From the NCBI GenBank assembly GCA_030655595.1, contig JAUSNQ010000087.1:1-64000 (forward strand): a DNA stretch of 64,000 bases, written 5' to 3'. The DNA comes from Paludibacter sp. (GTDB lineage Bacteria > Bacteroidota > Bacteroidia > Bacteroidales > Paludibacteraceae). The position numbers and the translations under genes are program-made. Under the pieces are notes generated by a model. It searched no databases and was not told where the DNA came from. It saw only the letters and a program-made list of their open reading frames with translations. Of this stretch, positions 7,079 through 25,745 are shown piece after piece. Each line of letters begins with the position of its first letter. The stretch's first letter is position 1.

Positions 7079-8455
7079 TTATTTAATTACAAACTGCTCA
7101 GTTAGTTTTTGATTGTTATTCTCTAGAGCCAGAATATAGTTTCCGGAACATAAATTTAATTTCCGGATAACATGGACGCCTGGAAACACATTTATTTGCT
7201 CTTTATACATCGTCTGACCATTCATGTTGAAAATCTTCAGGACACTCTGTTGCTGCAACTGTTCCGGAAAAGTGACGGTAAAACTACCATTGTTTGGATT
7301 GGGTTTAATCTGCAAAGATGCAGCTCCAATTTGTTTAACAGAAGATGCTTGTTTATTCAGAATTTCCGTGATTTTAGCGGAATAGACTTCTGCAAAACGA
7401 TACATGCCTTTGTCATTTGGATGCACATAATCGCCAATATCCGCCGACATATCCAGATTCAACTCTTCACGTGATAAATAATACAGGTTTTGATATCCTT
7501 TCTGAATAAAGTAATCATACACCTTTTTCAGTTCTATATTATCGACAAGCACCAAATCCTTTCTAGCTTTCCACATCTCCATATCAGCATATCCAAAATG
7601 TTCGGTAAGGATGATGGCTGCATCCGGATGATATTTTGTGAGGGTATCAACAGCACTTTTATATCTGCCATCAATCAGTGGCGGCATCGTCGTATTCGAG
7701 AAATTAGGGAGACAGTCCAGGATATAGATTGCGGCATCTATCCTGTTTATAACATCAATTACCGCCGGCTCCATCCGCCCGACACCACTAAATCCGAGAT
7801 TAACAATCGGATAATCTGGAAAGATTCGTCCGACGATGCTTGTCCATGTGTTTCCGGGACGGGAACATACCGCTCCGTGAACTACAGAAGTTCCATAAAC
7901 AACAATGGGCTTCTTTTCGTTACTTACCGTAAGAAATTCGAAATTTGCAGCCTGATCGACGGCAATTGTCAGAGAAGATGTTAATGCAAAAGGTGGAAAA
8001 TACAAGATGTACTCATACCCATTCGTTGCATAAGATGTCTCATCAGGGTTGATACTACCGTATATAAACTGGCTGCCGATTGTTCGTGTCCCCGGATGAC
8101 ACCAGTGCCATTTACCATCGGGCTTACGTGCATAAAGGTCAACTCCGTTTGCTCCAACCGTACTGAACCAGTTATTACTGCTGTATTGTGATGTCAGTGT
8201 ATAATTAACGGTGATGTTGCTCGTGTTCGTAACAAATCGTACATGTAAGCCGCTTGAACGCAAGGTTTGATTCCATACATCAGTTGGGATGGTTTGCTGC
8301 GCATCCGCAGGAAACCTTGAAAAGCTGTTCAAACCATATCCGTGTCCCCAGATAACATGTCTTGCCTGTCCCATCGGGTTGTATATTTTCTGGGCATCAA
8401 CAAGGTGAAATAATGCAAAGCAAGTTAATAGACTTATCAGTTTTACTTTTTTCAT
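7079..8455 (-). CDS. SGNH/GDSL carbohydrate esterase with GxDLY domain and T9SS sorting domain
   Basis: A secreted 458-residue esterase, probably removing acetyl or other acyl groups from a glycan. After a signal peptide (1-21) comes a beta-sandwich containing the GxDLY signature (GVDLY, 104-108). The SGNH hydrolase domain follows: nucleophile Ser190 in VVYGTS, Gly224 in GFSG, Asn251 in LPNFS, and the Asp342/His345 pair in GDYVHP. Residues 378-458 form a type A T9SS C-terminal domain (PNPNNGSF, then SGNYILAL, ending in EQFVIK), so the protein should be carried across the outer membrane and anchored at the surface. It is the last gene of the long operon that begins with the SusC at 25745. The natural acyl substrate is unknown. 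Confidence 0.88.
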   Translation of the reverse strand: MKKVKLISLLTCFALFHLVDAQKIYNPMGQARHVIWGHGYGLNSFSRFPADAQQTIPTDVWNQTLRSSGLHVRFVTNTSNITVNYTLTSQYSSNNWFSTVGANGVDLYARKPDGKWHWCHPGTRTIGSQFIYGSINPDETSYATNGYEYILYFPPFALTSSLTIAVDQAANFEFLTVSNEKKPIVVYGTSVVHGAVCSRPGNTWTSIVGRIFPDYPIVNLGFSGVGRMEPAVIDVINRIDAAIYILDCLPNFSNTTMPPLIDGRYKSAVDTLTKYHPDAAIILTEHFGYADMEMWKARKDLVLVDNIELKKVYDYFIQKGYQNLYYLSREELNLDMSADIGDYVHPNDKGMYRFAEVYSAKITEILNKQASSVKQIGAASLQIKPNPNNGSFTVTFPEQLQQQSVLKIFNMNGQTMYKEQINVFPGVHVIRKLNLCSGNYILALENNNQKLTEQFVIK

Positions 8456-8483
8456 TGATATTAGTATTTTGAATTGTTCTGGA

Positions 8484-9341
8484 TTATTTAACTATAACGA
8501 TATTTGCAACCTTTCGTTCTCCCCAATTATCAAAAACTTTGTTGTCGCTTGGTTTATTCAACACCCCGTTTCCGGTAGCATCATACGACCAAAGTGTTGT
8601 TGAACCGCCACCATCAAGATTGATGGCGTCATGCCCTCCTACCATTTTTATAAGATGTGTAAGTTCTTGCATATTAACTCCATCCGCATTGTTGGGATGA
8701 CGACCATCGACTGATATCATCAACAGTTTCATATCATTAGTTATTGCTATTGCACTACGAGGATGTTTTGTTTCAATAAATTTTTTCTTACACATAGAGA
8801 AATCACTCATTCTTCCATCAAGTATCATAAGCGGACCAGCTGCAAGAATAGTCAGTTTCGGGTCATTGAACTTTTTGTTTTCATTTGCTTTTTCCCATGC
8901 TTTGAGTTGAATTTTTCCGTTCTTCAGAAAAATAGCACCTGTAATTCTTTCTGCAAACTCAAATACTGTTGTTGTATCCTTAAGTTCTTTTCCAACCCTG
9001 AAAAAACATACTGAATTGCCTTTCTTAACATTAAAATAAGATCCATTTATTGCAACAAATGCATGATTTGCTTTAGCTGTCTCACTGGTAATTCTATTGG
9101 GGACTGTTTCAATAATTTCGGCTTTGTATTTACCTATTTTCATATCAACTTCAATGATGTTGATGTTTTGGATACCCTTATACAAATTCTGAACCTGAGC
9201 ATGCTTGTGTACAATGCCTTTTTTAATTTCTTTTGTTTCCCACTTAATGCCCTTGATGACAACTGAATCTTGCTGTGTTTGTGCATTCAGGTATAAAACA
9301 ATGCCTAAAAGTACAGTTATTAATTGAATTTTCAATTTCAT
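8484..9341 (-). CDS. Phosphodiester glycosidase (NAGPA/DUF2233 family), secreted
   Basis: A 285-residue member of the family of human N-acetylglucosamine-1-phosphodiester alpha-N-acetylglucosaminidase, which removes a sugar from a sugar-phosphate diester. A signal peptide covers 1-20. Family motifs are present in order: NGSYF (99-103), AGPLMILDG (168-176), Arg196 in HPRSAIA, DGR (212-214) and NLDGGGSTT (241-249). It is the shortest and most divergent of the three copies in this operon and lacks the VSGTDLF-type N-terminal extension of the others. Its start overlaps the end of the upstream esterase gene by 4 bp (ATGA), so the two are translationally coupled. The sugar and the aglycone phosphate are unknown. 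Confidence 0.87.
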   Translation of the reverse strand: MKLKIQLITVLLGIVLYLNAQTQQDSVVIKGIKWETKEIKKGIVHKHAQVQNLYKGIQNINIIEVDMKIGKYKAEIIETVPNRITSETAKANHAFVAINGSYFNVKKGNSVCFFRVGKELKDTTTVFEFAERITGAIFLKNGKIQLKAWEKANENKKFNDPKLTILAAGPLMILDGRMSDFSMCKKKFIETKHPRSAIAITNDMKLLMISVDGRHPNNADGVNMQELTHLIKMVGGHDAINLDGGGSTTLWSYDATGNGVLNKPSDNKVFDNWGERKVANIVIVK

Positions 9342-10990
9342 TTCACTGAAATTTTTGACGTGTAATTATAATTATTTGATTGAATATTAACTAAATAGAT
9401 TCCTTGATCCAAACCCGGCATATCGTACGATATAGTTTCTCCGGCATCATAATTTTGACCATCAATAAAAAGTACAGCTTTACCGGTTGTGTCAAAAATC
9501 TTTACGCAGCTATGACCGATCTCAGATGAAGTGATAAATAGCATGCCTTCCTTGTAATATGCTTGAAATTTCAGATCATCCTGAGTGGAAGTTATTGAAG
9601 TATAGTTTTCAAGACCCGGAACAATAAAAGTCTGTGCATTTGCATTGAGTTTGTAATAAAATGCTACGCAGAAATTGTAGAGCGGATAAGGCTTGTCATA
9701 GATTATCCCATCCCCGTCTCTTGGCTCATAAGTCGGACGAAGTGTTGTTTCAGCAGCATCTCTCGGGTAGAAATAAGTATTATCCGGATTTTTTTTATCC
9801 AGATCAATGTAATTATAGAAAGCCGGATAGTCGTCGCTGTCGCGCAAATTCCCGTGACCTGCATTATTAGTGCCGGCATACATGATTTCAATATCTCCCG
9901 TCAAATCAGTTAAAGCGGTTATAATAACGCAATCACCCTCAATTCTTACACCTGTAATGATTTTTTTTGATCCGTTGAGATACAATTCAAAACCGGCGCT
10001 TGTAACTTTATTCACCAGTTGTTCGTCAATTACAAGAGGTAGTTTAGGCACCAAAAACCTGATTTTAACTTCTTTAGGATTACTTGTTCTGGAAATCTCA
10101 ATCGGTTGCAGAGGTTTAAAATCTTCACCCAGTACTTTTGTACGATAGAACACTTTACCTAAAATTTCACCAAACCAGCGATAACCGTTTGAGTCAAGAT
10201 GCCCTCCTCTGTCGGTCACAGGGTAAACCGGCCCGGCGCAAACAACATCCTGATTTTCATTAGATGCTTCCAACTGAGCCATACCAATAGTTAAATAAGT
10301 GCCACGAGTATATTGCACACCTGCCTGATAGGTAATAAACAAAGGTACATCAGTCTGATTATATTTATTCATGATATCTGACTGCATATTTTCTTTCAAC
10401 ACCAACATCAATGATTTATATGTAGCTTTGTCAGAGGTAGGTCTGCTACCGGCAGTCAGACCACTATTTCCTGTTGGCACTGTGTAATTATATTCTCCCT
10501 GCATCCAAACAATAGCCGGACAGTTAATATCACTTGTTATGGAAGATGCATAATGTATCGCATTACTAAAATGGCTGTAACTAATGGGGTTGTAATGTTC
10601 CTTTGAGAGTTCTTCAATCGTTTTTCCTCCAGTTCCGCAAGAGGTTGCAATAAGCTGATATTGTCCGTTTGTTTTTATCTGGATGTGGTTGGCTGCCGCG
10701 ACAATGGGCGATTCTGCATAAATCATGTTTGCCCGGTTCTTTGCCAGTGAAGCTGTTGTTGATGCTACATTTGCAACAAGCGGATTCAGCTGATTTATAA
10801 AGACATTCCCGAAATTTGACCATACCTGTGTCCCGATCATGTAATTACCAGAAACAGCTGTGGTTGATAACGGAGGCCACGATTGGTGACCGGTAGACAA
10901 ACTCTGACCATAGATAATCAGGTGTTCATAACCTTGCACCTGCATCAACAAAAAAGAGACAAAAAACAGGAATAAAATAATTTTCTTCAT
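9338..10990 (-). CDS. Sialate O-acetylesterase-like SGNH esterase with T9SS sorting domain
   Basis: A 550-residue exported esterase. A signal peptide (1-20) precedes an SGNH domain of the sialate O-acetylesterase (SASA) type. The motifs are nucleophile Ser30 in IYGQS, GTGGK (119-123), WMQGEYN (162-168) as the oxyanion and acid region, and Asp260/His264 in VTDRGGH. A beta-sandwich follows. The last 80 or so residues resemble a T9SS C-terminal domain (GKAVLFIDGQ, then GIYLVNI, ending in KISVK). It should act at the cell surface on acylated sugars. The family name does not prove sialic acid as substrate; xylan or other acetylated glycans are equally possible. It is coupled by a 4 bp overlap to the NAGPA-type gene that follows. 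Confidence 0.83.
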   Translation of the reverse strand: MKKIILFLFFVSFLLMQVQGYEHLIIYGQSLSTGHQSWPPLSTTAVSGNYMIGTQVWSNFGNVFINQLNPLVANVASTTASLAKNRANMIYAESPIVAAANHIQIKTNGQYQLIATSCGTGGKTIEELSKEHYNPISYSHFSNAIHYASSITSDINCPAIVWMQGEYNYTVPTGNSGLTAGSRPTSDKATYKSLMLVLKENMQSDIMNKYNQTDVPLFITYQAGVQYTRGTYLTIGMAQLEASNENQDVVCAGPVYPVTDRGGHLDSNGYRWFGEILGKVFYRTKVLGEDFKPLQPIEISRTSNPKEVKIRFLVPKLPLVIDEQLVNKVTSAGFELYLNGSKKIITGVRIEGDCVIITALTDLTGDIEIMYAGTNNAGHGNLRDSDDYPAFYNYIDLDKKNPDNTYFYPRDAAETTLRPTYEPRDGDGIIYDKPYPLYNFCVAFYYKLNANAQTFIVPGLENYTSITSTQDDLKFQAYYKEGMLFITSSEIGHSCVKIFDTTGKAVLFIDGQNYDAGETISYDMPGLDQGIYLVNIQSNNYNYTSKISVK

Positions 10991-11024
10991 GATATCAACT
11001 GATTTTCAAATCAATAAATTCTGA

Positions 11025-11062
11025 TGTGGAGGGTAGTTCAAAATCGCAAGCTACCCGCCACA
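11025..11062 (-). other. Intercistronic hairpin
   Basis: Arms 11025-11036 and 11051-11062 pair over 12 bp with one mismatch around a 14 nt loop. It lies 12 nt after the stop of the beta-helix gene at 11075 and before the esterase start at 10990. No T-run follows on the minus strand, so it is more likely an mRNA stability or processing element than a terminator. Confidence 0.55.
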
Positions 11063-11074
11063 AAAGAAACCTCA

Positions 11075-12769
11075 CTAAAACAATACTTTCGAATTTTGAC
11101 CATTGACATTGACAATATAAACATTGCCCTTTCGCAACTGATTGTCTATGCGTGTAACATCACCTTTTGCAGTTGTATCGAACACACGTTGACCAGTAAT
11201 ATTAAATACAACGACCCGATCACTTGTTTTTGTGTGTACTACGATGCCGTTTTGATCTGCATAAGCTACCGGTTGTTGTTTTTCAGATACCTGTATTGTA
11301 TTCGAAAAAGGACCGTTAGCAATCCATGCACCCATCACCGTACCGGCACGCTGATTACCCAACTGATCGTACATAACAATGTTATCTGGAACGGCAGGTG
11401 TTAATATACCACCCAATGATTGTAATGCCGCAGAAGTCATACCCATCGTAAATGCCGTATTTGTTTCTTCATCAAGTAACAATTTACATGTTTGGGTTGC
11501 TCCTCCATTATTGGCAAGCGCATCCAGCATGGTTGCGGCGATAAACGATTTGTCAGCAACTTCAACAGCATCACCATCGTACATTTTAACTCCTATGGTC
11601 GATTTTTTTGGCGTCAACACACTGGTTGAAGTAACTGCCGCATCGTGATTATTAGCACCCAACGCTGTATTCCCTGAAACAATCGAATTATGAATATTAA
11701 TGGTACATCCTGCTGTGAGCGCAAAAATACCTGCTGTTGAAGGATTCAACAATAAAGATTTGTTGCCTGTAATAGTTGAACTGATTACTTCAAGGGTGTT
11801 TGGCAAAGTAGTAACATTTGATGTATGTAAAGCAATACCGGCACCGTTACCATTACTTTCATTACCATAAATGGTACAATTAACAACCTGAACCTGTGAA
11901 CCATCACGCACGTAGATACCCGAACCATTTCGGGAAGTCGTTGCACTACCTAATCCGGCAACATTTTGTGAAATAGTGGTATTATAAAAATACCCTTTGG
12001 AATTGGTTATAATCTGAATAGCACCTACACCCGAATTTTTGTTTCCAATGATACTGGAATTATTCACACGGAGCGTTGATGATGCGAACCAAAAACTTGC
12101 ACCGTTACCGGCAGTACTCTGACCAACATTATTTTCGACAAGACAATTATTTACGGTTACATCAGCATTTGAAAAAGCATATACTCCCGGGGTATGACTC
12201 CTGGATTTATTGTTGATTATTTTACTATTATTAATTTCGACCACAGCTCCCCCGATAATCATAGCACTACCGTTTATACGAACAAAACTCAAAGCATTGA
12301 TAGTTAGAGTAGCTGCTCCGGATGCAGCCGCATTTCCACCCGTAATCGTCACATTATCGATGCTGATTTTTTTACCTGATGCCGCCGGTGCCGTAACTGC
12401 TACAACATGATAATAAGTTTCATTTCCGTTAAAAATTGTCACATGATCATCCGAAGGATTGTCTCCAGAAATAGGATTTGCAGGGTATCCTCCAATCAGT
12501 GCTACATTAGATTTAATTTCAAATGTTTTATCCTCTTCCAGCGTACCACCTGTAATATAATCGGCAGGTACAAATGTGCCTGCACCAATATGAATTACAT
12601 CATCATCCTGAGCCACAGCGAGTGCTGCGTTTAAGGTCATGGCGTTTGCCCACGATAAACCATCATTGCTTACGAGTCCACTGGTTGTTACATAGTAATC
12701 TACCGCATAAATATTGGACAATAAAATGCTTATGAGAACAACTGCTATTGATAAATTTATTTTTTTCAT
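11075..12769 (-). CDS. Parallel beta-helix surface protein (choice-of-anchor Q type), T9SS cargo
   Basis: A 564-residue protein with a signal peptide (1-22), then a right-handed beta-helix made of repeated Asn-rich turns (NNSKIINNKS, NSSIIGNKNSG). The N-terminal capping motif is DYYVTTSG...GLSWANAMTLNAAL and the end-cap is DQLGNQRAG. A T9SS-like C-terminal domain follows (VVVFNITGQRV to NGQNSKVLF). No polysaccharide lyase active site is evident, so it may bind glycan rather than cut it (inference). It is one of four paralogs in this operon and is closest to the neighbour at 12804. Functions of such beta-helix proteins are poorly known. A lyase role cannot be excluded. Confidence 0.82.
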   Translation of the reverse strand: MKKINLSIAVVLISILLSNIYAVDYYVTTSGLVSNDGLSWANAMTLNAALAVAQDDDVIHIGAGTFVPADYITGGTLEEDKTFEIKSNVALIGGYPANPISGDNPSDDHVTIFNGNETYYHVVAVTAPAASGKKISIDNVTITGGNAAASGAATLTINALSFVRINGSAMIIGGAVVEINNSKIINNKSRSHTPGVYAFSNADVTVNNCLVENNVGQSTAGNGASFWFASSTLRVNNSSIIGNKNSGVGAIQIITNSKGYFYNTTISQNVAGLGSATTSRNGSGIYVRDGSQVQVVNCTIYGNESNGNGAGIALHTSNVTTLPNTLEVISSTITGNKSLLLNPSTAGIFALTAGCTINIHNSIVSGNTALGANNHDAAVTSTSVLTPKKSTIGVKMYDGDAVEVADKSFIAATMLDALANNGGATQTCKLLLDEETNTAFTMGMTSAALQSLGGILTPAVPDNIVMYDQLGNQRAGTVMGAWIANGPFSNTIQVSEKQQPVAYADQNGIVVHTKTSDRVVVFNITGQRVFDTTAKGDVTRIDNQLRKGNVYIVNVNGQNSKVLF

Positions 12770-14523: not shown

Positions 14524-16728
14524 TTATTTGGATGAAATAATTAATAATCCGTTTGCGACAGCCCTTTCGCCGGCAGCATCCGAAGGCTTGTTTCGTATTT
14601 CAAATCGACCGGAAGTAAAATTCGGCGTATTCCTGATGAAAAAAGTAGTTGAACCTCCACCGTCCAAATTGATTCCACTATACGATCCCAATGCGAGTAA
14701 GCACTTGCTTAACTCTTCGAAAGTCATTCCATTGGAATAGGAATCATTACGTCCATCAACTGCAAGGAAATAAACTTTCTTTTTATCTTTCGAAATACCA
14801 ACACAGGTTCTCGGCTCATATGACATAACGTAAACTTTATGAATAGCGCTGTCTTTTACAAGCCAATACATCCCGCCAACAGCTTCCTGAATATTCTCTT
14901 TTAAGTCAGGGTATGTATATTGATCTCCTACTATTGCCTCTTTATTTTTTGTTATGGCAAAGAATGTCCGGTCCACATCCTGAAACACAGTTTTTATACC
15001 CACACCAGATTTATACAAGATGCTTCTTGGTACTCCTGTCGTCAGATCAAAAAAATCTCCATTTACCCCACCATAGACTTTATGTCCTTGTTGATCTTCA
15101 TAAGTTGCCTGTACAGTCATTTTTTGCCTCATGAATGTATTGCTGTTGTTGGGTGTTGATGCTTCTATACTGATATATGGATTTGTAAGATCAACTTCAA
15201 AAACAAAAAGTTTCATGGCCAGCGAAGAAGTCGAAACGTAACTTATTTCCGTAGCGGTCACGCCCTCTGTGACCTCATAGGTTATGTCCGACAATATTGA
15301 TTCAAACAAATCAGTTCCACTTACCAATTTCTCTCCCAATGGTGTTTGGGGTATGGGGGGCGACAAGGTATTTGTAACACCGATTAATTCATCCGATGAC
15401 ATGCCATGATGGTAAGCAGGATTGTTAGTTCCCAACAGACGGCAGGTTTTGTTATACCCACCATTATCAGCCAGGGTTTCTATCATTGTTTCAGGAACAA
15501 ATACTTCACCCGAAATTTCCTTCCCTGCCTTATCATAAACTTTATCTGTTATGACAGAGTTAAAGACAGAATAATTTGCTTGGTTAAACAATGCAATATC
15601 TTGATTCTCATTGCCAGAGATTACAGAATTATATATATTCAACCGGCAATAACGATCGTCAAGTCTGATTCCCCCACCATCATTAAGCACACCGGCATTG
15701 CGGGTTACAGTCGAACTGATAATATCCAGTCTTGCTGGATTATTTTGCATGTTATTGGTATACAAACTGATTCCTCCCCCACCATTTGTTTCACGTGTTG
15801 TTTTATTACCATAGACTGTACAATTTATCATGACACCGACAGATTTCTCCCGTCCATAATATCCGGCTTTATGTCCTGCAGTATTATGGTTGATGGTCGT
15901 GTTGTACATGTAAGTTTTGGATGCATAAGTAGAGTTAAATGCATATATACCGGCACCTACTCCACCAGTTTCATTGTTAGAGATATTACAGTTGAAAAGC
16001 GAAACTGTTGACGCATCGTTCCATAAACCGCCACCATTAACTACGCCAGTATTATTAGCTATTGTACAGTGATGAAAAGTCACATTAGCTCCAAAAAAAA
16101 CATAAACTCCAGGCGTGTGATAAAGAGATTGATTTTCAATGATATCACAACAATTCAACACGACTGTCGATTTGCCAACTATCATGGCTCCTCCATTGAA
16201 CCGCGGATAACTCAGCCCATTTATCACAACACTTCCAGAACCATTTGCTCCTGCATTTCCTCCGGTGACCGTCAAATTACTAAATTGCACCTTTTTATCT
16301 TTTTCGACAGGAGCAGAAATAGTGATCACGTGAAAAACTTTTGTACCAGCAATCACTCCACTTAGGATAGTCTTGTTATCTTTATCCGCAACATCACCCA
16401 GCTTTGGGTCAACAGGATAACCGCCAATTATGCTGACATTGTGTTTTATTTCAAAAGTTTTGTCCTCATCAAGACTCCCTCCTGTTACATTGTTAACCGG
16501 TGTGTAAGTTCCTGCTGCGAGGTGTATCACATCTCCGCTTTGTATAAGTGATAATGCATTATTGAAAGATGTTGCGGCTGACCAGCTTAAACCATCAGCC
16601 TCTGGAATGCCATTGGTCTTTACATAATAATCACTTGCCGATAAATTCAGCGTTAGTAAGACTGAAAGCAGAAACACCAAATACTTACTATTTCTGTGTT
16701 CTATGTTTTTATGATTCACAATTAGCAT
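14524..16728 (-). CDS. Fusion protein: beta-helix module plus phosphodiester glycosidase (NAGPA) domain
   Basis: A 734-residue two-part protein. After a signal peptide (about 1-32), residues 33-455 form the same beta-helix as the neighbouring paralogs. From about 463 the sequence becomes a complete NAGPA/DUF2233 domain (SGTDLF 470-475, VNGDFF, EPRTCVG, VDGRND, NLDGGGSTT). The junction lies in SPPIPQTPLGEKLV: the beta-helix loses its DQLG end-cap and the NAGPA part begins just where the mature form of the separate 20148-21071 protein begins. There is no T9SS domain and no lipobox, so the location is periplasmic or unclear. It probably combines glycan binding with cleavage of a sugar-phosphate diester. 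Confidence 0.87.
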   Translation of the reverse strand: MLIVNHKNIEHRNSKYLVFLLSVLLTLNLSASDYYVKTNGIPEADGLSWSAATSFNNALSLIQSGDVIHLAAGTYTPVNNVTGGSLDEDKTFEIKHNVSIIGGYPVDPKLGDVADKDNKTILSGVIAGTKVFHVITISAPVEKDKKVQFSNLTVTGGNAGANGSGSVVINGLSYPRFNGGAMIVGKSTVVLNCCDIIENQSLYHTPGVYVFFGANVTFHHCTIANNTGVVNGGGLWNDASTVSLFNCNISNNETGGVGAGIYAFNSTYASKTYMYNTTINHNTAGHKAGYYGREKSVGVMINCTVYGNKTTRETNGGGGISLYTNNMQNNPARLDIISSTVTRNAGVLNDGGGIRLDDRYCRLNIYNSVISGNENQDIALFNQANYSVFNSVITDKVYDKAGKEISGEVFVPETMIETLADNGGYNKTCRLLGTNNPAYHHGMSSDELIGVTNTLSPPIPQTPLGEKLVSGTDLFESILSDITYEVTEGVTATEISYVSTSSLAMKLFVFEVDLTNPYISIEASTPNNSNTFMRQKMTVQATYEDQQGHKVYGGVNGDFFDLTTGVPRSILYKSGVGIKTVFQDVDRTFFAITKNKEAIVGDQYTYPDLKENIQEAVGGMYWLVKDSAIHKVYVMSYEPRTCVGISKDKKKVYFLAVDGRNDSYSNGMTFEELSKCLLALGSYSGINLDGGGSTTFFIRNTPNFTSGRFEIRNKPSDAAGERAVANGLLIISSK

Positions 16729-16815: not shown

Positions 16816-18225
16816 CTATTTCAATCTGCAAATCTTCTCTAATTTTTTCGGAATGTCTGTGTTCTCCATCATTCCTGTAAATTCATCAGCACCAGCTCCT
16901 ATGGCAAAAACCGGGACAGCGGCACCCGAATGATTATTTGTTGTCCAACCTAAATTAGCGTGTTTGTTTATGATCTCGACTGCAAGCTTTGCGAGTGGTT
17001 CGTCGACCGAATAGGAAGTTTTAATCTTCTTACTGGTTTTGGTTACAAAAGTATCTTCGTACGATGTTTTCAGTTTAACCTCATCACCTTTGGATATAGG
17101 TATTTCATTCCAGAAACCCATTTGTTCTTTCAGTAGTTCAATTACATGATTCCATGAAACACCTGCGGGATATTCTACATGCAGTTCATTAATTAACCCT
17201 GATAGTTTTCCCAGTGAAGCTTTCTGATTTGAGAGAACTTGCAGATTTAACACTGTTCCTTCGATTCCAAGAGCAAGTCCACCGGTCTCGTGATCAGATG
17301 TTAGCAGTATCAAGGTTTCTTTTGGATGCTTTAAATAGAAATCATAAGCCAAACGAATGCTTTTTTCCATATCAATTAATTCGGTAATAGCAGCAGCTCC
17401 ATCGTTTGGATGAGAAGCATGATCGATTCGTCCACCCTCAACAACCAGCATGAAACGACGGGCTTTATTGTTTTTGAAGTAATCAATAGCAGTTGAAGTC
17501 AGTTGTTCCAGTGTCAGGTCTTCGGGAGTTCTGTCGATTGCATAAGGAAGCGCAGTTCCCGGATAATCCCGTTTAGAAATAAGAACTACAGGTTGATCAT
17601 ATTTGATTTCGTTGATATATTGACTAAAACCTTTATATACAACGTAACCAGCTGCAGCAAAATACGTTAACAGATGTGGATCATGCTGATTTTGCGGGTT
17701 AGTGTACGATTTAAACCCTGCTCCACCGAGAAAATTGATAGAAGAATTTGCTGCTTGCTTTCCTATCTCATAATACATATTCCGGTTTTCGGCATGAGCG
17801 TAAAAAGAAGATGGAGTAGCATCATCCACGCTGGTAGAAGTTACGATACCTGTCATCCAATTGTTTTTCTTTGCTTTGTGTACAACTGAAAATACAGGTT
17901 CATTTTTCGCGTTTAATCCTACAGACCTGTTATTTGCTTTATGACCGCTAGCCAAAGCAGTTCCTCCGGCTGACGAATCAGTAATATAGTGCGTGGCAGA
18001 ACGTGTATTCACTATTCCTGTAACAGGAAAATGCGTAAACACGAGTTTGTCAGACAAATCGGATATGTCATCAGATTGATAAAATGAAGTCGCTGTAATA
18101 TGATTAAATCCCATACCATCTCCGATGAAATAAAAAACATACTTAGGAGTTTTACCTGAAGCTATAAAACTCAGGAGCAAAATCAAAAAAACAAAGCAAC
18201 TATTTCTAAAATTCATGTATAACAA
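16816..18225 (-). CDS. Alkaline phosphatase (PhoA superfamily), exported
   Basis: A 469-residue metal-dependent phosphomonoesterase that releases inorganic phosphate. A signal peptide covers about 1-24; Met4 is an alternative start. Metal and catalytic residues are visible: Asp36 in FIGDGMGF, the phosphorylated Ser84 in TDSSAGGTA, Glu263 and Asp268/His269 in VVEGGRIDHASH, Asp311/His312 in SDHETGG, and His432 in NNHSGAAVPV. Length matches the family. It lies between the beta-helix gene and the fusion gene. This fits a pathway in which sugar phosphates released by the NAGPA-type enzymes are dephosphorylated in the periplasm. The operon position suggests glycan-linked rather than general phosphate supply (inference). 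Confidence 0.93.
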   Translation of the reverse strand: MLYMNFRNSCFVFLILLLSFIASGKTPKYVFYFIGDGMGFNHITATSFYQSDDISDLSDKLVFTHFPVTGIVNTRSATHYITDSSAGGTALASGHKANNRSVGLNAKNEPVFSVVHKAKKNNWMTGIVTSTSVDDATPSSFYAHAENRNMYYEIGKQAANSSINFLGGAGFKSYTNPQNQHDPHLLTYFAAAGYVVYKGFSQYINEIKYDQPVVLISKRDYPGTALPYAIDRTPEDLTLEQLTSTAIDYFKNNKARRFMLVVEGGRIDHASHPNDGAAAITELIDMEKSIRLAYDFYLKHPKETLILLTSDHETGGLALGIEGTVLNLQVLSNQKASLGKLSGLINELHVEYPAGVSWNHVIELLKEQMGFWNEIPISKGDEVKLKTSYEDTFVTKTSKKIKTSYSVDEPLAKLAVEIINKHANLGWTTNNHSGAAVPVFAIGAGADEFTGMMENTDIPKKLEKICRLK

Positions 18226-18289: not shown

Positions 18290-20077
18290 TTATTTAGCAC
18301 AAGCTCCAATCGACGTTTTTCCAACACGTGTTTTCCCAAGCTGATCGAATGTAGTTATATCGTCGGAAATAACCGGATCGAAGTTTAAGCCTAGTATCGA
18401 CAATTGTGCCGATGTCATGCCAAATGTTTCCGCAGGATTACCACTTCCGGTAAGCAGACATGTATAACCAACACCTCCATTGTTAGCAAAAGGAGCCAAC
18501 ATGGTTGCAGGATTAAATGTCTGGCCGTTAACCTCATTCCCTGAACCGCCATATACTAATCCGGAAATAATCGTATAAGATTTATTGTAATTTACAGCAG
18601 CTGGCGCATAAATATCGCCTACATTTCCACCTCCCAGATTTCCTGAAATGATGGAGTTATAAATACTGAGCGTACAGTTGGCATCATTCACCCTGATGCC
18701 ACCACTCGCATCAGCGGAACCATTTGAAACATTACCGGTAACAGTTGAACTGATTAAGTCGAACCTGACTGTAGTGGTGTTCGCATACAAACAAATACCA
18801 GCTCCTGAGTTAGTTGCATGTGTAGAATTATTCCCGAAAACAGTACCGTTCACCATCAAACCAATTGAATTTTCGCGACCATAATAACCTGCTTTGTGGG
18901 CAGCATAATTGTTATCTATAGTGGTATTGAACATATACGTTTTTGAAGGAACAGAAGCATTGAAGGCATAAATACCTCCTCCAACACCTGAGTTTCCATT
19001 AAAAGAAACAGCTGAATTTATCAGATAAACGGTAGATCCGTCGTTCCAGATTGCACCTCCGTTTGCTGCACTTGCACTGGTACCCGTGTTTTTATCAATA
19101 GAACAACTGATGAATGTAACATGAGCCGTTGAGAATATATATAATCCAGGAGTATGATAATCTGCCTTATTCTCATGTATCCGACAATTTTTGAATTCTA
19201 CAACCGATCTTGCAATCACACCGGCTCCACCATTTAAACGCGGATAATTAAGGCCATTTATATTCAAATTAGCAGTTCCACTTGCTGCTGATTTACCTCC
19301 TGTGATATTGATGTTTTCGAAAACAATCTTACGACCTTCTTCAACAGGAGCAGTAACCATGATTACGTGGTATGCAAATTGTCCATTCATACTTCCACTT
19401 AACGTTGTTGTGTTAACGGAAGGGTCAACTTGTGCGCCGCTGGAAGCATCTGCAGGATAACCTCCAATTAAGGAGATATTCTTTTTAATTTCAAAGGTCA
19501 GATCGCCCGGATTTGAATCGCTGCCTCCTGTTGCAACCACGGTCGGTGTGTAGGTTCCCGCAGCAATATGAATTTGATCGTTGGTTTCGGCCAAAGCAAG
19601 CGCATTATCAAGGGTCGTTGCTGTTTCCCAGGTCAAACCATCGTTGATTGTACTCCCATCAACCTTAACATACAGCATAGTTGCAACATCCGGTAGCGGA
19701 TCACCTGCTTCCTGCTTAATAATGATGATGTTTTCATATTCTTGTGTAATCCATGCCGTTAATCGTGCGGTTCTTACAGATGTAGTTGGATTTTTGGCGA
19801 CTGAAAAAGCAACAGAGTCAGATTCCTCTCCGCGTTGGGTATTTACTGTTACCCAATCTGCATCCGACTTTACTCTCCAGGGAAGATTGGCGGTAAGCAT
19901 GACTTTATAGTTAGCAACATCCTTGCCTACAAAAATTGTATCTGATTCACCGAAAACCATATTCGGATCTTTAGGCTTGAAACTACCCAGATCTTCTTCA
20001 ACACATGAAAAAGTTCCAAAAATGAGTAAGCCTAGTAATAGTCGGAAAAATATTGTTTTTTTCTGAATTTTAATCAT
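18290..20077 (-). CDS. BACON-domain lipoprotein with parallel beta-helix
   Basis: A 595-residue surface lipoprotein. The lipobox GTFSC makes Cys25 the acylated residue. Residues 45-125 form a BACON domain (LPWRVKSDADWVTV is typical), often a spacer or glycan-binding domain in PUL lipoproteins. From 135 to the end it is a beta-helix of the same family as its neighbours, closest to the N-terminal part of the fusion gene at 14524 (both contain KAGYYGRE and GGVGAGIYAFN-like stretches). It ends soon after the DQLGKTR cap and has no T9SS domain: lipidation replaces T9SS as its way to the surface. It is probably a surface glycan-binding protein for the SusC/SusD pair. Catalysis is not evident. Confidence 0.85.
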   Translation of the reverse strand: MIKIQKKTIFFRLLLGLLIFGTFSCVEEDLGSFKPKDPNMVFGESDTIFVGKDVANYKVMLTANLPWRVKSDADWVTVNTQRGEESDSVAFSVAKNPTTSVRTARLTAWITQEYENIIIIKQEAGDPLPDVATMLYVKVDGSTINDGLTWETATTLDNALALAETNDQIHIAAGTYTPTVVATGGSDSNPGDLTFEIKKNISLIGGYPADASSGAQVDPSVNTTTLSGSMNGQFAYHVIMVTAPVEEGRKIVFENINITGGKSAASGTANLNINGLNYPRLNGGAGVIARSVVEFKNCRIHENKADYHTPGLYIFSTAHVTFISCSIDKNTGTSASAANGGAIWNDGSTVYLINSAVSFNGNSGVGGGIYAFNASVPSKTYMFNTTIDNNYAAHKAGYYGRENSIGLMVNGTVFGNNSTHATNSGAGICLYANTTTVRFDLISSTVTGNVSNGSADASGGIRVNDANCTLSIYNSIISGNLGGGNVGDIYAPAAVNYNKSYTIISGLVYGGSGNEVNGQTFNPATMLAPFANNGGVGYTCLLTGSGNPAETFGMTSAQLSILGLNFDPVISDDITTFDQLGKTRVGKTSIGACAK

Positions 20078-20147: not shown

Positions 20148-21071
20148 TTAATTACCCGAGATGATTAGTAAACCGTTTGCTACAGCTCTTTCTGCTCCTC
20201 CATTGTCCGATGGCCAATTTCTTATTTCAAATCGGTCGTCAGTAAAATCCGGCGTATTCCTGATAAAGAAAGTTGTGGAACCTCCACCGTCAAGGTTGAC
20301 TGAGTTGTAAGCTCCAAGAGCCATCATACATTTAGCGAGTTCTTCAAAATTCATCCCGTTGGAGTACCAGAAGTTTCGACCGTCAACAGCCATCATGTAA
20401 ACTTTTTTCTGATCTTTAGATACACCTATACAAGTTCTGGGTTCCACGGATGTGTCCGTTTGTTTGATCAAAATACTGTCAGAAACTAACCAATATAATC
20501 CTCCAACTGCCTCTTTAATATTTTCTTGTACAGCAGGATATGTGGTTCCATCGCCAACCATTGCTTTTTTGTCATTAGTTATTGCAAAAAAGGTGCGGCT
20601 ATCATCCTGAAAAGCTGTTTTAACCGCAACACCTTTCTTGTAAAAAATACTTCTTGGCTGCCCGGTTGTCATGTTATAAAAATCTCCGTTAATTCCACCA
20701 TATACCAAATTTCCTGGTTGATCCGCGAATGTAGCCTGTACCGTCATGGGTTGCATGGCAAACACATTTTGGTTGTTAGGAGAAGAAGCTTCAATGCTGA
20801 TAGCAGGATTGGTCAAGTCAACCTCGAAGATAAAAATCTTCATGGATAAGCCTTTCATCGACAGATACTTTATCTCGGTAGCTACAACACCACTGGTTAC
20901 AGTATAGGTGGTGTCTGTAGATATGTAGGCAAACAAATCGGTTCCGTTAACCAACTTAGCACCGGTTTCTGTTTTGGGTATAGCTTCATAAACTGTCTGG
21001 GTTTCCGGTTCTTCGCAAGCAAATAAACCTATAACGAAGGCTAGTAGAAAATATAATTTTATCTCTTTCAT
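20148..21071 (-). CDS. Phosphodiester glycosidase (NAGPA/DUF2233) lipoprotein
   Basis: A 307-residue enzyme of the same family as the 8484 product and the C-terminal half of the 14524 product. The lipobox GLFAC gives Cys19, so it is membrane-anchored. Motifs are INGDFY (127-132), EPRTCIG with Arg212, VDGR (229-232) and NLDGGGSTT (259-267). It is very similar to the fused copy over its whole mature length. It comes directly after SusD in the operon (23 bp gap), the usual place for the first processing enzyme at the surface. Predicted action is removal of a sugar from a phosphodiester-linked glycan. The exact linkage is unknown. Confidence 0.9.
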   Translation of the reverse strand: MKEIKLYFLLAFVIGLFACEEPETQTVYEAIPKTETGAKLVNGTDLFAYISTDTTYTVTSGVVATEIKYLSMKGLSMKIFIFEVDLTNPAISIEASSPNNQNVFAMQPMTVQATFADQPGNLVYGGINGDFYNMTTGQPRSIFYKKGVAVKTAFQDDSRTFFAITNDKKAMVGDGTTYPAVQENIKEAVGGLYWLVSDSILIKQTDTSVEPRTCIGVSKDQKKVYMMAVDGRNFWYSNGMNFEELAKCMMALGAYNSVNLDGGGSTTFFIRNTPDFTDDRFEIRNWPSDNGGAERAVANGLLIISGN

Positions 21072-21094: not shown

Positions 21095-22366
21095 TTAATA
21101 ATTCGGGTTTGGAGTCAGATTTGGATTTAATTGCAGCTCTCTTCCCGGAATAGGCAGCACATGCTGATGTGGTAATAACTCAAGAACGCTTGCTGCTTTC
21201 CCGGTTCTCACATAATCGTGATACATAAAGTTTTCAGCAATAAATTCTTTCTTCCTTTCCAACAAAATTGCATCTATATAAGCATCGTCTGTAGCAGGAA
21301 AAATATCGGTCAATCCACGGAAACGTCTCAATTCATTCAGTCTGCCGACACCATTGTTCCGACCTAGAGCTTCTGCACTAATCAAATATATTTCTGCCAG
21401 ACGTGATATGATAATAGGATCTCTTCCTGCCTGTCCACTCGGATATTTGTTGATGCAGTTACTTCCTGAAACATTTGTAACAGAGATGTCTCTTCTGGTA
21501 TCTGTTGGGTCGTACATATCCATTACAGCCTGAGGAGGTCTATATGCATATTGACCTTTGTTTGGATGTGCATAAGTATAGAACAAATCACCCAGATTAT
21601 TACCGGATTCGGATGATAAATTTTCGAATGCAAAAATAATTTCAGTATTCAGTACTTTTCTGAAAATTTTCTCATAGGAATCCAACCGGTATTTTCCTGA
21701 GGTTATCAAACTCTCGGCTAACAGTCCGGCTTCAATTTTCTTTCCTGCACTCAGCAATACTCTGGCTTTCAATGCCGTTGCCGCATCTTTTGAAACATAA
21801 TAATAACTTGAAGATGTGCCTAAAAGAGAGATAGCCATATCCAAATCCTCTTCTATAAAATTCCAAACATCACTAATAGGGTCACGGGAAACAAGTTCCA
21901 GCGTGTTTTGGCGGATTATGGGCACGTCACCCCATCGGCTTGCTAGACAAAAATATATGTATGCCCTGAAATAATGTGCTTCTCCTTTCACCGTATTTCT
22001 TAGTAGAAAGGTTGAAGTAATATTTTCGGTAATTGAGATGAGGTTGTTTACCTGATACAGTGCTGAAAAATATCCATTCCAACTGCTTGAAATATATCCA
22101 TTTAGAGGATTTAATGTACCATATATCAAATCCTTAGGGTTTCCTGAACTCGTAGAAAGTGTACCCCCCAGTATATCGAAGAATATGAATGCTCTTTCTC
22201 CCGGATCATTTTGTACAGAATTATACATACCCCATCTCAATGCGGGAAGATCCTTTTCTGTAACAGATTCCGGAGCTACAGCAGAATGTGAAAATATATT
22301 CAACGAATCAGCACAAGAAGTAAGCATCAAGGTGCTTAATAGAATTCCTATTATATTTTTTTTCAT
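21095..22366 (-). CDS. SusD/RagB-like glycan-binding lipoprotein
   Basis: A 423-residue partner of the SusC transporter encoded just upstream (19 bp gap). Cys18 in LMLTSCAD is the lipidation site. TPR-type helices are visible (GEAHYFRAYIYFCLASRWGD, 128-147) and the typical family end RELQLNPNLTPNPNY is present. At 423 residues it is short for SusD, usually 500-600, which suggests a reduced loop region and perhaps a small ligand. SusD forms the lid over SusC and captures ligand. The ligand cannot be read from sequence; the neighbours suggest a phosphorylated glycan. Confidence 0.93.
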   Translation of the reverse strand: MKKNIIGILLSTLMLTSCADSLNIFSHSAVAPESVTEKDLPALRWGMYNSVQNDPGERAFIFFDILGGTLSTSSGNPKDLIYGTLNPLNGYISSSWNGYFSALYQVNNLISITENITSTFLLRNTVKGEAHYFRAYIYFCLASRWGDVPIIRQNTLELVSRDPISDVWNFIEEDLDMAISLLGTSSSYYYVSKDAATALKARVLLSAGKKIEAGLLAESLITSGKYRLDSYEKIFRKVLNTEIIFAFENLSSESGNNLGDLFYTYAHPNKGQYAYRPPQAVMDMYDPTDTRRDISVTNVSGSNCINKYPSGQAGRDPIIISRLAEIYLISAEALGRNNGVGRLNELRRFRGLTDIFPATDDAYIDAILLERKKEFIAENFMYHDYVRTGKAASVLELLPHQHVLPIPGRELQLNPNLTPNPNY

Positions 22367-22385
22367 AACTTTTTACTTTTAAATT

Positions 22386-25300
22386 TTAGAAGCTTATGTT
22401 GGCTCCAAAACTAATAGAGCGTGGTTGTGGTACATTCAACAAGTCAACTCCACTAAGCCGAGGATCTGTTTCTGTGCTTACTTCGGGATCGTAACCTGAG
22501 TATCGGCTCAACAAGAAAAGATTGTCACCCTGCACATACAATCGCAGACCTTTGAGATTTAATTTTGACAAGTATTTGTTTGGAACGTTATAACTACAAG
22601 TCAGGTTACGCAACCTTACAAATGAACCGTCTTCGAGCCATCTGTCAGAGTTTCTGTCGTTGTTGGTATCACTGTTCATTGCCCTTGGATATTTATTAGT
22701 GCTACCCGGGCCGGTCCAGCGTTTGTCGACATAATCCTCAAGGATAGCAAATCGCCCCCCCAACCGACCGATGGTAGTACCCTTTCTTTGGTTGTAGACC
22801 ATATTTCCATACATATAAGTAAAGAAAACATCAAGCTGAAAAGCTTTATACCTGAAGGAGTTGTTCCATCCACCAAAGAAGTCGGGTGTGGGTGCATCCA
22901 TCACCTGTCGGTCGTTGTCGTTGATGATATTGTTACTGTCTGCATCCAACCATTTTACGTCACCAGCTCTGATTCCCAAGTCGTAAAATTCCTGAGGTAC
23001 TTCTCCGTCATATTGATAGATTCCTTCCATTTTAAACAAATAGAATGCACCGAGTTCTTTGCCAACTTGCAAAGCACGATTTGCTCCGATTGACAAAGGT
23101 TTATCATCACCCAGTAATGAGGTGATTTGATTTTTATTAGTTGAAATATTAAATTGTGATATCCAGTTTATGCTGCCAATCCTGAAATCGGTATTGAGCG
23201 TAAATTCAAGACCTACGTTACGCATTGAACCAATGTTACTCATGATACTGGTAACTCCGCTAGTTGCATGTATAGGCATACTATATAAAAGATTGTTTGT
23301 ATTTTTCAGGTAAGCATCAACAATCAAATTGATCCGACCTTTGAGAAATTCCATATCAAGACCAACATCATATTGATCGGCAGTTTCCCAGGTAAGTTTA
23401 TTGTTCCCGAAAGAAGTTACTGCAATACCACTCACTTCTCCATAATTCTTTCCTCCAGACATCAGGGATTGATATGCGTAATTGCCGATTCCATCCTGAT
23501 TACCTGTTTTACCATAACTAATTCTGAATTTCATATCAACTCCAGAATCTTTCATAAAATCTTCTTTCGACACATTCCAACCTATTGAAGCGGAAGGAAA
23601 CCATCCCCAACGAGTTGATGGAGCAAACTTAGAAGACCCATCTGTACGTAGCGTTAATGTCATGAGATATTTTTCCATGTAAGCCATGGTAGCACGACCA
23701 AAATAGGATTCCATTGCAAACTCCGACAAACTTCCGCTGGCATCATAAATTTCAGATGCAACCGAAAGCACATCAAATGCAGGAGATGGAAAACCTCGTC
23801 CGTCAATCATAGAAGTGTTTGTAGCCGTCTTTTGGTATGAGTGACCAAGCATTACCCCCAGATTTATCTTGCCAAATACATCATTATAATTGAGAATATT
23901 TTCAACCAATGTGTTTTTATTTAACCTATTATATTCAATTATTCGACCGGAACCAGTACTGTATGGGTGATTCTCGTTGTAATAGGTATAATCGTAAGTA
24001 TAACTGAGATCACTGTTAGAAGAACTTTTCCAGGTGAATTTGTCATCGAATTTCAACATGGCGTAGTAACTTCCCAGATAGCGGTAGTTATCAAAATAGG
24101 CTATTTGTTCATTTAAAATCTGAACCGGGTTGTGGAAAATAAGTTCATCTGTACCTCCTTGATAATATGTTCCGTCTGGTTTGATTGGACGGTCGAAAGG
24201 ACGTTGTTCTATAGCTCTGGCTAAGATGGTACTTCCCAGATTTGCACCGGGAACCTGATTGTTCTTTAGGTAATTACCACTAACATTTGCTCCGACTTCA
24301 AGCCATTTTCTTACTTCGTGACTGATTTTTGCTTTGAGATTTATTTTCTGAAGTGCGTTTGATTTAATAATACCTTCCTGACTAGTAATATTTCCACCAA
24401 TGTAGTAATTTGTTTTATTTACACCACCAGAAAATGATATGTCGCCATTGAATGCATGACCGGTTTGAGTTATGTAAGATAACCAATCCGAATCTGGTAA
24501 TCCTTGAAAAGGATTTGAAATTGGCATTTTATAATTGGCATCGCCAATGTTAAGCCCATATTGTCTATTGTAGTTATCAATCCCTTCGTTGTACTGCATG
24601 ACATACGTATCAGAATCTGCAAATTTTAGTTTGTTTTTATTGGCAAATTGAGAGAAACCAGTATTGATATTTAATTTGATATCTGACCTACCCTGTTTTC
24701 CTGACTTTGTAGTGATAACTACTACCCCGTTTGTTCCTCTTGAGCCATAAATTGCAGCTGATGCAGCATCTTTTAATACTTCAATTGATTCTATATCTGT
24801 GAGGTTTAATGTAGCAAGAGAACTCATGGCTTCTCCAAAGTTAAATACATTTGCATTACTATTGGTAATAGGCACTCCATCAACTACATACAATGGCTGA
24901 TTGCTCGCACTTAATGAAGATGCTCCACGAATTGACATTCTTTCTCCCGTACCCAGATTTCCTGATGTAGTTCCAATAGTCAGTCCCGCTACACGTCCTT
25001 CAAGCAACTGACCAGGACTGGCAACATTTCTCATGTTGGTTTCATCAATCTTCACCTTAGAGATTGCATTTGTAACCAACGAACGACGTTGCGTTCCATA
25101 ACCGATAACTACAAGTTCGTCAAGTGCTTTTACATCTTCGTCCAAAATAATCTTTATATTGCTTTTACCATCTATTTGAACAATCTCAGCATAATAACCG
25201 ATGTATGAGATATTCAGTTTTCCGTCAATCGGTGCTTCAATACTGAATTTCCCATCAATATCTGTTATTGTACCGGTATTGGTTCCTTCCAATATAACAG

Positions 25301-25745
25301 TGGCTCCTACGATTTCCTGCCCGTTAAAATCTGTTACAATTCCGGTTACTTTATTTGTATTTTGCTTAGTTGGAACCTTTTCTGCTTTTCTTAACACGAT
25401 CTGTTTACCATCTAAGCTGAAAACTATGTCGGTATCTTCAAAGATCTTTGTAAGTACTTTCTTAATGTCCTCTTTATTAACATTAACGGTTACTTTACGT
25501 GTAACATCAACAATTTTTTTGTTATACAGAAAACGAAATTCTGTTCGGGATTCAATGACATTCAACACATCCTCTACAGGTACATTTCTCATATTCATGG
25601 TAATCGTAGAAGATTGTGCCTGTAGTGTGAAAGTAAAGAATTGCATTAAACCACACATGATAAAAACGAATACAGATCGATTGACTTTAAACCCTAAATC
25701 AGGCTTTATCAGCGATTCAATTTTGTTTTTGAGGATAAAATTCAT
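22386..25745 (-). CDS. SusC-like TonB-dependent transporter with STN signalling domain
   Basis: A 1119-residue outer-membrane transporter. In order: signal sequence (to about 44), STN secretin/TonB short N-terminal domain (46-120), carboxypeptidase-regulatory-like domain (133-203), TonB box region (DELVVIGYGTQ, 209-219), plug and beta-barrel ending in ISFGANISF. The STN domain is the feature by which FecA-type receptors contact an anti-sigma factor, so this transporter probably also signals. A FecI/FecR pair lies about 22 kb away at 47757-49422 and no other is in the window. It is the first gene of the operon running down to 7079. No TAnnTTTG -7 box was found in its upstream region, which fits control by an alternative sigma factor. 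Confidence 0.95.
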   Translation of the reverse strand: MNFILKNKIESLIKPDLGFKVNRSVFVFIMCGLMQFFTFTLQAQSSTITMNMRNVPVEDVLNVIESRTEFRFLYNKKIVDVTRKVTVNVNKEDIKKVLTKIFEDTDIVFSLDGKQIVLRKAEKVPTKQNTNKVTGIVTDFNGQEIVGATVILEGTNTGTITDIDGKFSIEAPIDGKLNISYIGYYAEIVQIDGKSNIKIILDEDVKALDELVVIGYGTQRRSLVTNAISKVKIDETNMRNVASPGQLLEGRVAGLTIGTTSGNLGTGERMSIRGASSLSASNQPLYVVDGVPITNSNANVFNFGEAMSSLATLNLTDIESIEVLKDAASAAIYGSRGTNGVVVITTKSGKQGRSDIKLNINTGFSQFANKNKLKFADSDTYVMQYNEGIDNYNRQYGLNIGDANYKMPISNPFQGLPDSDWLSYITQTGHAFNGDISFSGGVNKTNYYIGGNITSQEGIIKSNALQKINLKAKISHEVRKWLEVGANVSGNYLKNNQVPGANLGSTILARAIEQRPFDRPIKPDGTYYQGGTDELIFHNPVQILNEQIAYFDNYRYLGSYYAMLKFDDKFTWKSSSNSDLSYTYDYTYYNENHPYSTGSGRIIEYNRLNKNTLVENILNYNDVFGKINLGVMLGHSYQKTATNTSMIDGRGFPSPAFDVLSVASEIYDASGSLSEFAMESYFGRATMAYMEKYLMTLTLRTDGSSKFAPSTRWGWFPSASIGWNVSKEDFMKDSGVDMKFRISYGKTGNQDGIGNYAYQSLMSGGKNYGEVSGIAVTSFGNNKLTWETADQYDVGLDMEFLKGRINLIVDAYLKNTNNLLYSMPIHATSGVTSIMSNIGSMRNVGLEFTLNTDFRIGSINWISQFNISTNKNQITSLLGDDKPLSIGANRALQVGKELGAFYLFKMEGIYQYDGEVPQEFYDLGIRAGDVKWLDADSNNIINDNDRQVMDAPTPDFFGGWNNSFRYKAFQLDVFFTYMYGNMVYNQRKGTTIGRLGGRFAILEDYVDKRWTGPGSTNKYPRAMNSDTNNDRNSDRWLEDGSFVRLRNLTCSYNVPNKYLSKLNLKGLRLYVQGDNLFLLSRYSGYDPEVSTETDPRLSGVDLLNVPQPRSISFGANISF

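What the first reader, a model, noticed from the sequence alone, without database searches (positions are those of the whole stretch)
7079..25745. SusC/SusD operon built around phosphodiester glycosidases: a possible phosphoglycan utilisation locus
The operon has SusC, SusD, three NAGPA/DUF2233 domains (20148, 14524, 8484), an alkaline phosphatase and two SGNH esterases, but no ordinary glycoside hydrolase or lyase that I recognise. Family knowledge says NAGPA-type enzymes cleave sugar-phosphate diesters and alkaline phosphatase removes the remaining phosphate. Together this suggests capture and breakdown of phosphate-bridged glycans such as teichoic-acid-like polymers, phosphorylated capsules or phosphomannans. 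A phosphate-scavenging role is an alternative. I know of no well-described PUL type with this content.
Basis: partly seen in the sequence, partly recalled or inferred. Interest (0 to 1): 0.82.

Follow-up and report, generated by a model that had tools for sequence, protein, structure and literature searches.

The report
Sugar-phosphate diester uptake and cleavage operon
A bacterium of the group Bacteroidota carries a row of genes that looks built to grab a phosphate-linked sugar chain, cut it at the phosphate links and strip the phosphate off; the core of the row recurs in relatives from the gut and elsewhere, but what it really feeds on is still unknown.

Summary
Window 7079-25745 (minus) is an 11-gene run with SusC, SusD, three NAGPA (PF09992) domains, a PhoA-type phosphatase and two esterases. 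A Paludibacter MAG has the 11 genes in the same order. Searching with SusD alone, NAGPA directly follows SusD in 24 of 24 relatives (46-65% identity) examined in Sphingobacteriaceae; four of those loci show only SusCD, two NAGPAs and FecR (ECF seen in three). Six of 20 Bacteroides NAGPA regions fetched have SusC-SusD-NAGPA-lipoprotein-NAGPA-PhoA. Four phosphoesterase families (PhoA, EEP, GDPD, type I PDE) turn up in or behind such runs, and GH20 in three. NAGPA1 models closely on BACOVA_00430 and vertebrate uncovering enzyme. Best reading: a SusCD transporter dedicated to a sugar-phosphate-diester glycan. Phosphate scavenging, as in the PUS loci of Flavobacterium, is a strong and partly overlapping rival. 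PhoA is not part of the core: 1 of 18 close Sphingobacteriaceae loci has one. Substrate and activity are untested. The helices have a PL9-like fold but are more likely binding proteins. New variant of a known kind; my searches of open papers found no description.

The parts
22386..25745 (-). SusC-like TonB-dependent transporter with STN signalling domain (SusC1)
   Evidence: Pfam Plug, CarbopepD_reg_2, STN; 89% id to the Paludibacter MAG, 57-62% to six Bacteroides loci
21095..22366 (-). SusD-like surface lipoprotein (SusD1)
   Evidence: Pfam SusD-like_3, SusD_RagB; 24 of 24 relatives of 46-65% id examined are followed by NAGPA
20148..21071 (-). NAGPA1, phosphodiester glycosidase, probable lipoprotein
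18290..20077 (-). BACON + right-handed beta-helix, probable lipoprotein, probably a surface glycan-binding protein
16816..18225 (-). PhoA-family alkaline phosphatase, motifs intact
   Evidence: PF00245 1.4e-66; motif scan; solved relatives
14524..16728 (-). beta-helix (N-terminal) fused to NAGPA2 (C-terminal)
   Evidence: PF09992 at residues 550-730; 67% id to NAGPA1, 49% id to the 18290 helix
12804..14489 (-). beta-helix protein with a doubtful T9SS-type tail
   Evidence: Pfam Beta_helix 1.5e-13; T9SS match below the cut-off
11075..12769 (-). beta-helix protein with a doubtful T9SS-type tail
   Evidence: Pfam Beta_helix 4e-10; 52% id to the 12804 protein; T9SS matches below the cut-off
9338..10990 (-). 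SASA-type carbohydrate esterase with T9SS tail
   Evidence: PF03629 6.4e-6, Por_Secre_tail; TIGR04183
8484..9341 (-). NAGPA3, phosphodiester glycosidase without a lipobox-like start
   Evidence: PF09992 4e-32; 47-54% id to the second NAGPA of six Bacteroides operons; start read by eye
7079..8455 (-). GxDLY/GDSL esterase with T9SS tail
   Evidence: PF14606 1.3e-49, PF14607, Por_Secre_tail
47757..49422 (-). FecR anti-sigma and ECF sigma genes; inferred regulators of SusC1, separated from it here by an inserted block
   Evidence: Pfam; FecR next to SusC1 in the Paludibacter MAG and in 18 of 18 Sphingobacteriaceae stretches

Best explanation
The operon is a SusCD uptake system dedicated to a glycan or oligosaccharide held together or decorated by sugar-phosphate diester bonds. 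Proposed steps: SusD1 and the BACON/beta-helix lipoprotein bind the substrate at the surface; lipoprotein NAGPA1 cuts glycosyl-phosphate bonds there; SusC1 imports the phosphorylated fragments; in the periplasm NAGPA3 and the helix-NAGPA2 fusion finish the diester cuts and PhoA removes the phosphate; the esterases, and perhaps the two tailed helix proteins, act outside on acyl groups or in binding. Shown: gene content, families, motifs, NAGPA fold, conserved SusD-NAGPA order, recurrent phosphoesterase neighbours. Inferred: locations, order of steps, substrate class, ECF/FecR control. Whether the cell wants the carbon, the phosphate or both is open.
Against: No activity, substrate or expression data. 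By BLAST a PhoA-like gene is seen in 1 of 18 Sphingobacteriaceae stretches with close NAGPA1 and another phosphoesterase in one more (L131), so a phosphatase is not part of the core; not every gene behind the cassette was scanned with Pfam. Eleven of 20 Bacteroides NAGPA regions have no SusCD on the same strand. The system is sporadic: 18 of 301, 1 of 150, 1 of 393 and 3 of 395 genomes in the four group searches (looser cut-off). Window PhoA is as similar to orphan Bacteroides PhoAs (41-45%) as to operon ones (42-43%), and the branch joining it to these is long; three label changes may also be one gain and two losses. Recalled: BACOVA_00430 had only about 1% of uncovering-enzyme activity on GlcNAc-P-Man. 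The nearest studied loci (PUS) concern phosphate starvation.
Confidence: 0.65

Rival explanations
1. Phosphate-scavenging (PUS-type) locus: the same enzymes serve mainly to win phosphate from sugar phosphodiesters or other organophosphates when phosphate is short. Overlaps with the best explanation in chemistry, differs in purpose and control.
For: F. johnsoniae PUSII is FecR-PusC2-PusD2-PhoA1 and is induced by Pi depletion; other PUS loci carry ECF or FecR genes too (passages of PMC8115612). Upstream of ECF in the window lie a SusD, DUF5689, two calcineurin-like phosphoesterases and a glycerol-3-phosphate dehydrogenase, in the same order in the Paludibacter MAG apart from extra genes.
Against: The word glycosidase does not occur in the main text of that paper. 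Constant pairing of this SusCD with NAGPA, a glycosidase, and GH20/GH123 in some relatives suggest sugar use. A PhoA-like gene is seen in only 1 of 18 close Sphingobacteriaceae stretches.
Confidence: 0.35
2. The beta-helix proteins are the main depolymerases (lyases or hydrolases of a new or PL9-like family) and NAGPA/PhoA only trim a phosphate-bearing side group.
Against: No helix protein was matched in L188-L193. In five Bacteroides loci the protein at this place shares only its first 180 residues with the helix protein, and in L164, L165, L188 and L193 NHL/TIG propellers stand there. Beyond residue 250 no Lys, and no Asp but D578, is conserved in 80% of rows.
Confidence: 0.2
3. In this locus NAGPA cleaves a non-phosphate glycosidic bond and the phosphoesterases are incidental, so it is an ordinary PUL for an uncommon glycan.
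For: Activity of this NAGPA branch is unknown; structural matches to solved NAGPA-family entries are 18-30% identical; most core loci show no phosphatase.
Against: Phosphoesterases of four families beside NAGPA-SusCD loci and a NAGPA-phosphoesterase fusion.
Confidence: 0.11

Closest known systems
PUS (phosphate utilisation system) loci of Flavobacterium johnsoniae, mainly PUSII, Fjoh_3249-3252 (PMC8115612, passages seen)
   Same: FecR-type regulator, SusC, SusD and a PhoA-family phosphatase in one cluster; other PUS loci have sigma factors and lipoproteins likened to polygalacturonases or pectate lyases
   Different: No glycosidase is mentioned in the main text; here NAGPA is the constant enzyme; Pi control unknown here
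BACOVA_00430 (PDB 3ohg), DUF2233 protein of Bacteroides ovatus, and its locus
   Different: SusC there is 26% identical; behind it DUF6528, GH3 and a metallophosphoesterase instead of PhoA; weak uncovering-enzyme activity is recalled, not read
Vertebrate NAGPA (mannose-6-phosphate uncovering enzyme)
   Different: 19-21% identity; eukaryotic trafficking enzyme (recalled); no transporter
Teichoic-acid hydrolases GlpQ and PhoD of Bacillus subtilis (as told in passages of PMC11188070)
   Same: Phosphoesterases acting on surface phosphate polymers; GDPD-family genes, the family of GlpQ (recalled), lie in two related P. saltans loci; the paper notes NAGPA fused to ShfP-like phosphoesterases
   Different: No SusCD and no GDPD in the window operon; a glycosidase, not a phosphodiesterase, is the constant enzyme
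PL9 polysaccharide lyases (Pel9A)
   Same: Right-handed beta-helix fold of the 18290 protein
   Different: Recalled catalytic pattern not seen as conserved; no lyase evidence

Membership tests
NAGPA / phosphodiester glycosidase (PF09992) | profile match over curated cut-off | tested here: met
   three domains, 112-127 bits against a cut-off of 25
NAGPA / phosphodiester glycosidase (PF09992) | fold of solved members | tested here: met
NAGPA / phosphodiester glycosidase (PF09992) | conserved family motifs | tested here: met
   motif scan of the three copies; alignments to 3ohg and vertebrate NAGPA
NAGPA / phosphodiester glycosidase (PF09992) | hydrolysis of a glycosyl-phosphate diester | not testable with these tools
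   needs an enzyme assay
PhoA alkaline phosphatase | profile match and catalytic/metal motifs | tested here: met
   PF00245 225.7 bits; DSSAGG, EGGRIDH, TSDHET, NHSG present (their roles recalled)
Polysaccharide utilisation locus (PUL) | SusC/SusD pair with further envelope proteins, degrading enzymes and a regulator | tested here: met
   FecR/ECF displaced here, FecR adjacent in relatives
Polysaccharide utilisation locus (PUL) | breaks down and imports a polysaccharide | not testable with these tools
   no substrate data
PUS (Pi-inducible SusCD locus) | SusCD with phosphomonoesterase or phosphodiesterase genes | tested here: met
   PhoA in the operon
PUS (Pi-inducible SusCD locus) | induction by phosphate depletion | not testable with these tools
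   needs expression data
PL9 lyase (18290 beta-helix) | right-handed beta-helix of PL9 type | tested here: met
PL9 lyase (18290 beta-helix) | catalytic Lys and Asp calcium cluster (recalled) | tested here: inconclusive
   no such pattern among residues conserved in 80% of 64 rows, but residues were not matched one by one to Pel9A

The most novel reading that the evidence does not exclude
A sporadic but far-spread, undescribed class of Bacteroidota locus, present in Bacteroides, digests poly(glycosyl-1-phosphate) polymers (sugar-1-phosphate teichoic acids or capsules of other microbes) wholly with phosphodiester glycosidases and phosphatases and without a glycoside hydrolase: two NAGPAs, one at the surface and one inside, are a complete minimal kit.
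Probability: 0.27. Interest if true: 0.82.

Novelty: new variant of a known kind. Interest (0 to 1): 0.63.

Why it matters
If right, NAGPA-led loci are a way for Bacteroidota to feed on phosphate-linked glycans, such as surface polymers of other microbes, that the glycoside hydrolases and lyases of ordinary PULs would not open. It gives the bacterial DUF2233 family a concrete, testable role, since the gene of its solved member BACOVA_00430 also sits in a SusCD locus, and it ties glycan use to phosphate supply.

Tried and rejected
Rejected: FecR/ECF genes as proof of a carbon-catabolic role, because Pi-induced PUS loci carry such regulators. Rejected as a claim: beta-helix as PL9 lyase. Rejected as evidence: window PhoA being closer to operon PhoAs than to orphans by identity (41-45% for orphans, 42-43% for Bacteroides operon copies). 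GH95 and GH3 neighbours as operon parts: not matched behind the operon in the Paludibacter MAG. A SDR gene behind the cassette in L116, L117, L118 and L122, with a mannonate dehydratase after it in L117, is taken as a separate unit. Promoter and terminator scans gave no more than shuffles. A third NAGPA in the BACOVA_00430 locus, which I had read, was wrong: those coordinates were BACOVA_00430 itself; the next gene is DUF6528.

Led nowhere: literature searches for NAGPA loci, BACOVA_00426 to 00431 and phosphoglycan or teichoic-acid utilisation gave no description; the library holds only open-licence PMC papers. One search found the PUS paper. The PhoA row list was cut off, so no genome-wide NAGPA-PhoA distance count was made. 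By sequence no PDB relative was found for the SASA esterase or the 12804 helix. In the genome searches only the 5-15 best first-look candidates per genome were scored, so counts are lower bounds.

Full report
What is there. The 11 frames between 7079 and 25745 run on the minus strand with gaps of 19-87 bp and one 4-bp overlap. In reading order: SusC1 with an STN domain, SusD1, NAGPA1, a BACON/beta-helix protein, PhoA, a beta-helix fused to NAGPA2, two more beta-helix proteins, a SASA esterase, NAGPA3 and a GxDLY/GDSL esterase. NAGPA2 is 67% identical to NAGPA1 and its helix part 49% identical to the 18290 helix, so a helix-NAGPA pair seems to have been duplicated; NAGPA3 is a distant type (31% to NAGPA1 over 205 columns). 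Both esterases carry T9SS tails; the two other helix proteins have only matches below cut-off. NAGPA1 and the 18290 protein keep a lipobox-like Cys in all rows of the alignments I chose (27 and 64 rows); NAGPA3 and PhoA show none at their start, read by eye. Surface or periplasmic placing from these signals is inference.

Who else has it. The best, a Paludibacter MAG, holds the 11 genes in order at 74-91% identity (NAGPA3 44%), plus one EEP-family gene between the last helix protein and the SASA esterase. Window and MAG also share, apart from extra genes, the upstream order SusD, DUF5689, metallophosphoesterase, BACON protein, metallophosphoesterase, GlpA, ECF, FecR. In the MAG FecR is next to SusC1; in the window about 21.7 kb (25,991-47,749) with a second SusCD and a hybrid two-component regulator lies between.

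The core in Sphingobacteriaceae. NAGPA1-alignment matches at E 1e-80 or better occur in 18 of 301 genomes. In these 18 stretches SusC, SusD and NAGPA follow each other with FecR upstream; the helix lipoprotein comes next in 17, and in L131 after a propeller, a second NAGPA and a phosphodiesterase. Of the 17 other than L131, 16 have no further same-strand frame within 150 bp of the helix gene; the exception, L138, is a YicC gene. Because those loci were chosen by NAGPA, I searched again with SusD1 alone: 27 matches in 26 of 301 genomes. Eighteen (49-65%) are the same loci. The next six (46-50%) were fetched: NAGPA (35-41%) follows SusD in 6 of 6, in four with a NAGPA3-type gene upstream of FecR and no helix protein. 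So 24 of 24 are paired with NAGPA; three weaker matches (34-37%) were not fetched. The group is rare elsewhere: 1 of 150 and 1 of 393 genomes in the family and order of the Paludibacter MAG (itself the hit), 3 of 395 in its class at a looser cut-off.

Bacteroides. PF09992 matches in 44 of 99 genomes of the genus of B. pyogenes. I fetched 20 regions around strong matches. Nine of 20 hold SusC-SusD with NAGPA (L149, L150, L151, L152, L155, L156, L158, L164, L165); 11 are NAGPA genes without such a pair on the same strand. In six of the nine the order is SusC (57-62% identical), SusD (58-60%), NAGPA, a lipoprotein, NAGPA3-type (47-54%), PhoA. Of these six, ECF and FecR were recognised in L150, L152, L155 and L156, FecR alone in L149, neither in L158, where a GlcNAc-2-epimerase-family gene precedes SusC and a DUF4434 gene is inserted; gene models of L149 are broken, and its first NAGPA shares a frame with SusD. 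L151 stops at the contig end; L164 and L165 are more distant (SusC 42-43%) and show no PhoA. Relatives of the L156 NAGPA1 (89% or more) are named from B. finegoldii, B. congonensis, B. difficilis and B. zhangwenhongii; that these are human-gut species is recalled. The gene of the solved BACOVA_00430 is matched at 100% in one genome and lies in ECF-FecR-SusC-SusD-NAGPA-BACON protein-NAGPA (BACOVA_00430)-DUF6528-GH3-metallophosphoesterase. Another Bacteroides locus has SusC-SusD-NAGPA-BACON protein-NAGPA-GH123-PhoA.

Phosphoesterases. PhoA: window, MAG, six Bacteroides loci, L147 and, at 24% identity, L126. L126 and L188 are taken to be Pseudopedobacter saltans because the contig length equals that listed for it. 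A tree of 29 PhoA rows needs three changes of the operon label, which may be three gains or one gain and two losses; the branches that join window and Bacteroides operon copies are long. EEP: MAG, L188, L193. GDPD: L126, L188. Type I phosphodiesterase: L009, directly abutting the helix gene, and L131. GH20: L126, L135, L188. These were found by scanning chosen neighbours, not every gene of every locus. A Fictibacillus protein joins NAGPA and a purple-acid-phosphatase-type domain in one chain; NAGPA fusions to ShfP-like phosphoesterases are noted in PMC11188070, which argues for lipoteichoic acid as the substrate of ShfP (passages seen).

Interpretation. A transporter clade that was followed by a phosphodiester glycosidase in every locus examined, sometimes with no other recognised enzyme, and that in places has gained phosphoesterases and hexosaminidases, is best read as taking up a substrate with sugar-phosphate diester bonds. 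GDPD and GH20 in P. saltans and GlpA upstream in the window hint at glycerol phosphate and HexNAc, as in teichoic acids, but only hint. PUS loci of F. johnsoniae (FecR-PusC2-PusD2-PhoA1, Pi-induced; passages of PMC8115612) show that such gene sets can serve phosphate scavenging and that ECF/FecR genes do not tell the two roles apart. The weak uncovering-enzyme activity of BACOVA_00430 (Das et al. 2013, seen only as a reference entry) is recalled.

Noticed in passing
window 25991-47749: A block of about 21.7 kb (second SusCD, hybrid two-component regulator, GH3, beta-helix and tailed proteins) sits between FecR and SusC1, which are adjacent in the Paludibacter MAG; its SusC is at most 37% identical over its full length to any match in that MAG, 42% over one piece.
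   Followed up: partly
window 49566-63998: SusD, DUF5689, BACON protein, two calcineurin-like phosphoesterases and a glycerol-3-phosphate dehydrogenase in a row, in the same order in the Paludibacter MAG apart from extra genes; looks like a second phosphoester-use (PUSI-like) module.
   Followed up: partly
L164, L165, L131, L188, L193: NHL/TIG beta-propeller proteins stand after NAGPA where other loci have a beta-helix lipoprotein.
   Followed up: partly
L006 9848-13954: Fictibacillus 1368-aa protein with NAGPA near the N-terminus and a purple-acid-phosphatase-type phosphoesterase near the C-terminus.
   Followed up: partly
L158 11308-12474: A GlcNAc-2-epimerase-family gene about 30 bp before SusC in one Bacteroides NAGPA-PhoA operon; a hint at HexNAc use.
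   Followed up: no
window 26227-29463: Two secreted proteins with weak T9SS-type tails and no recognised catalytic family.
   Followed up: no
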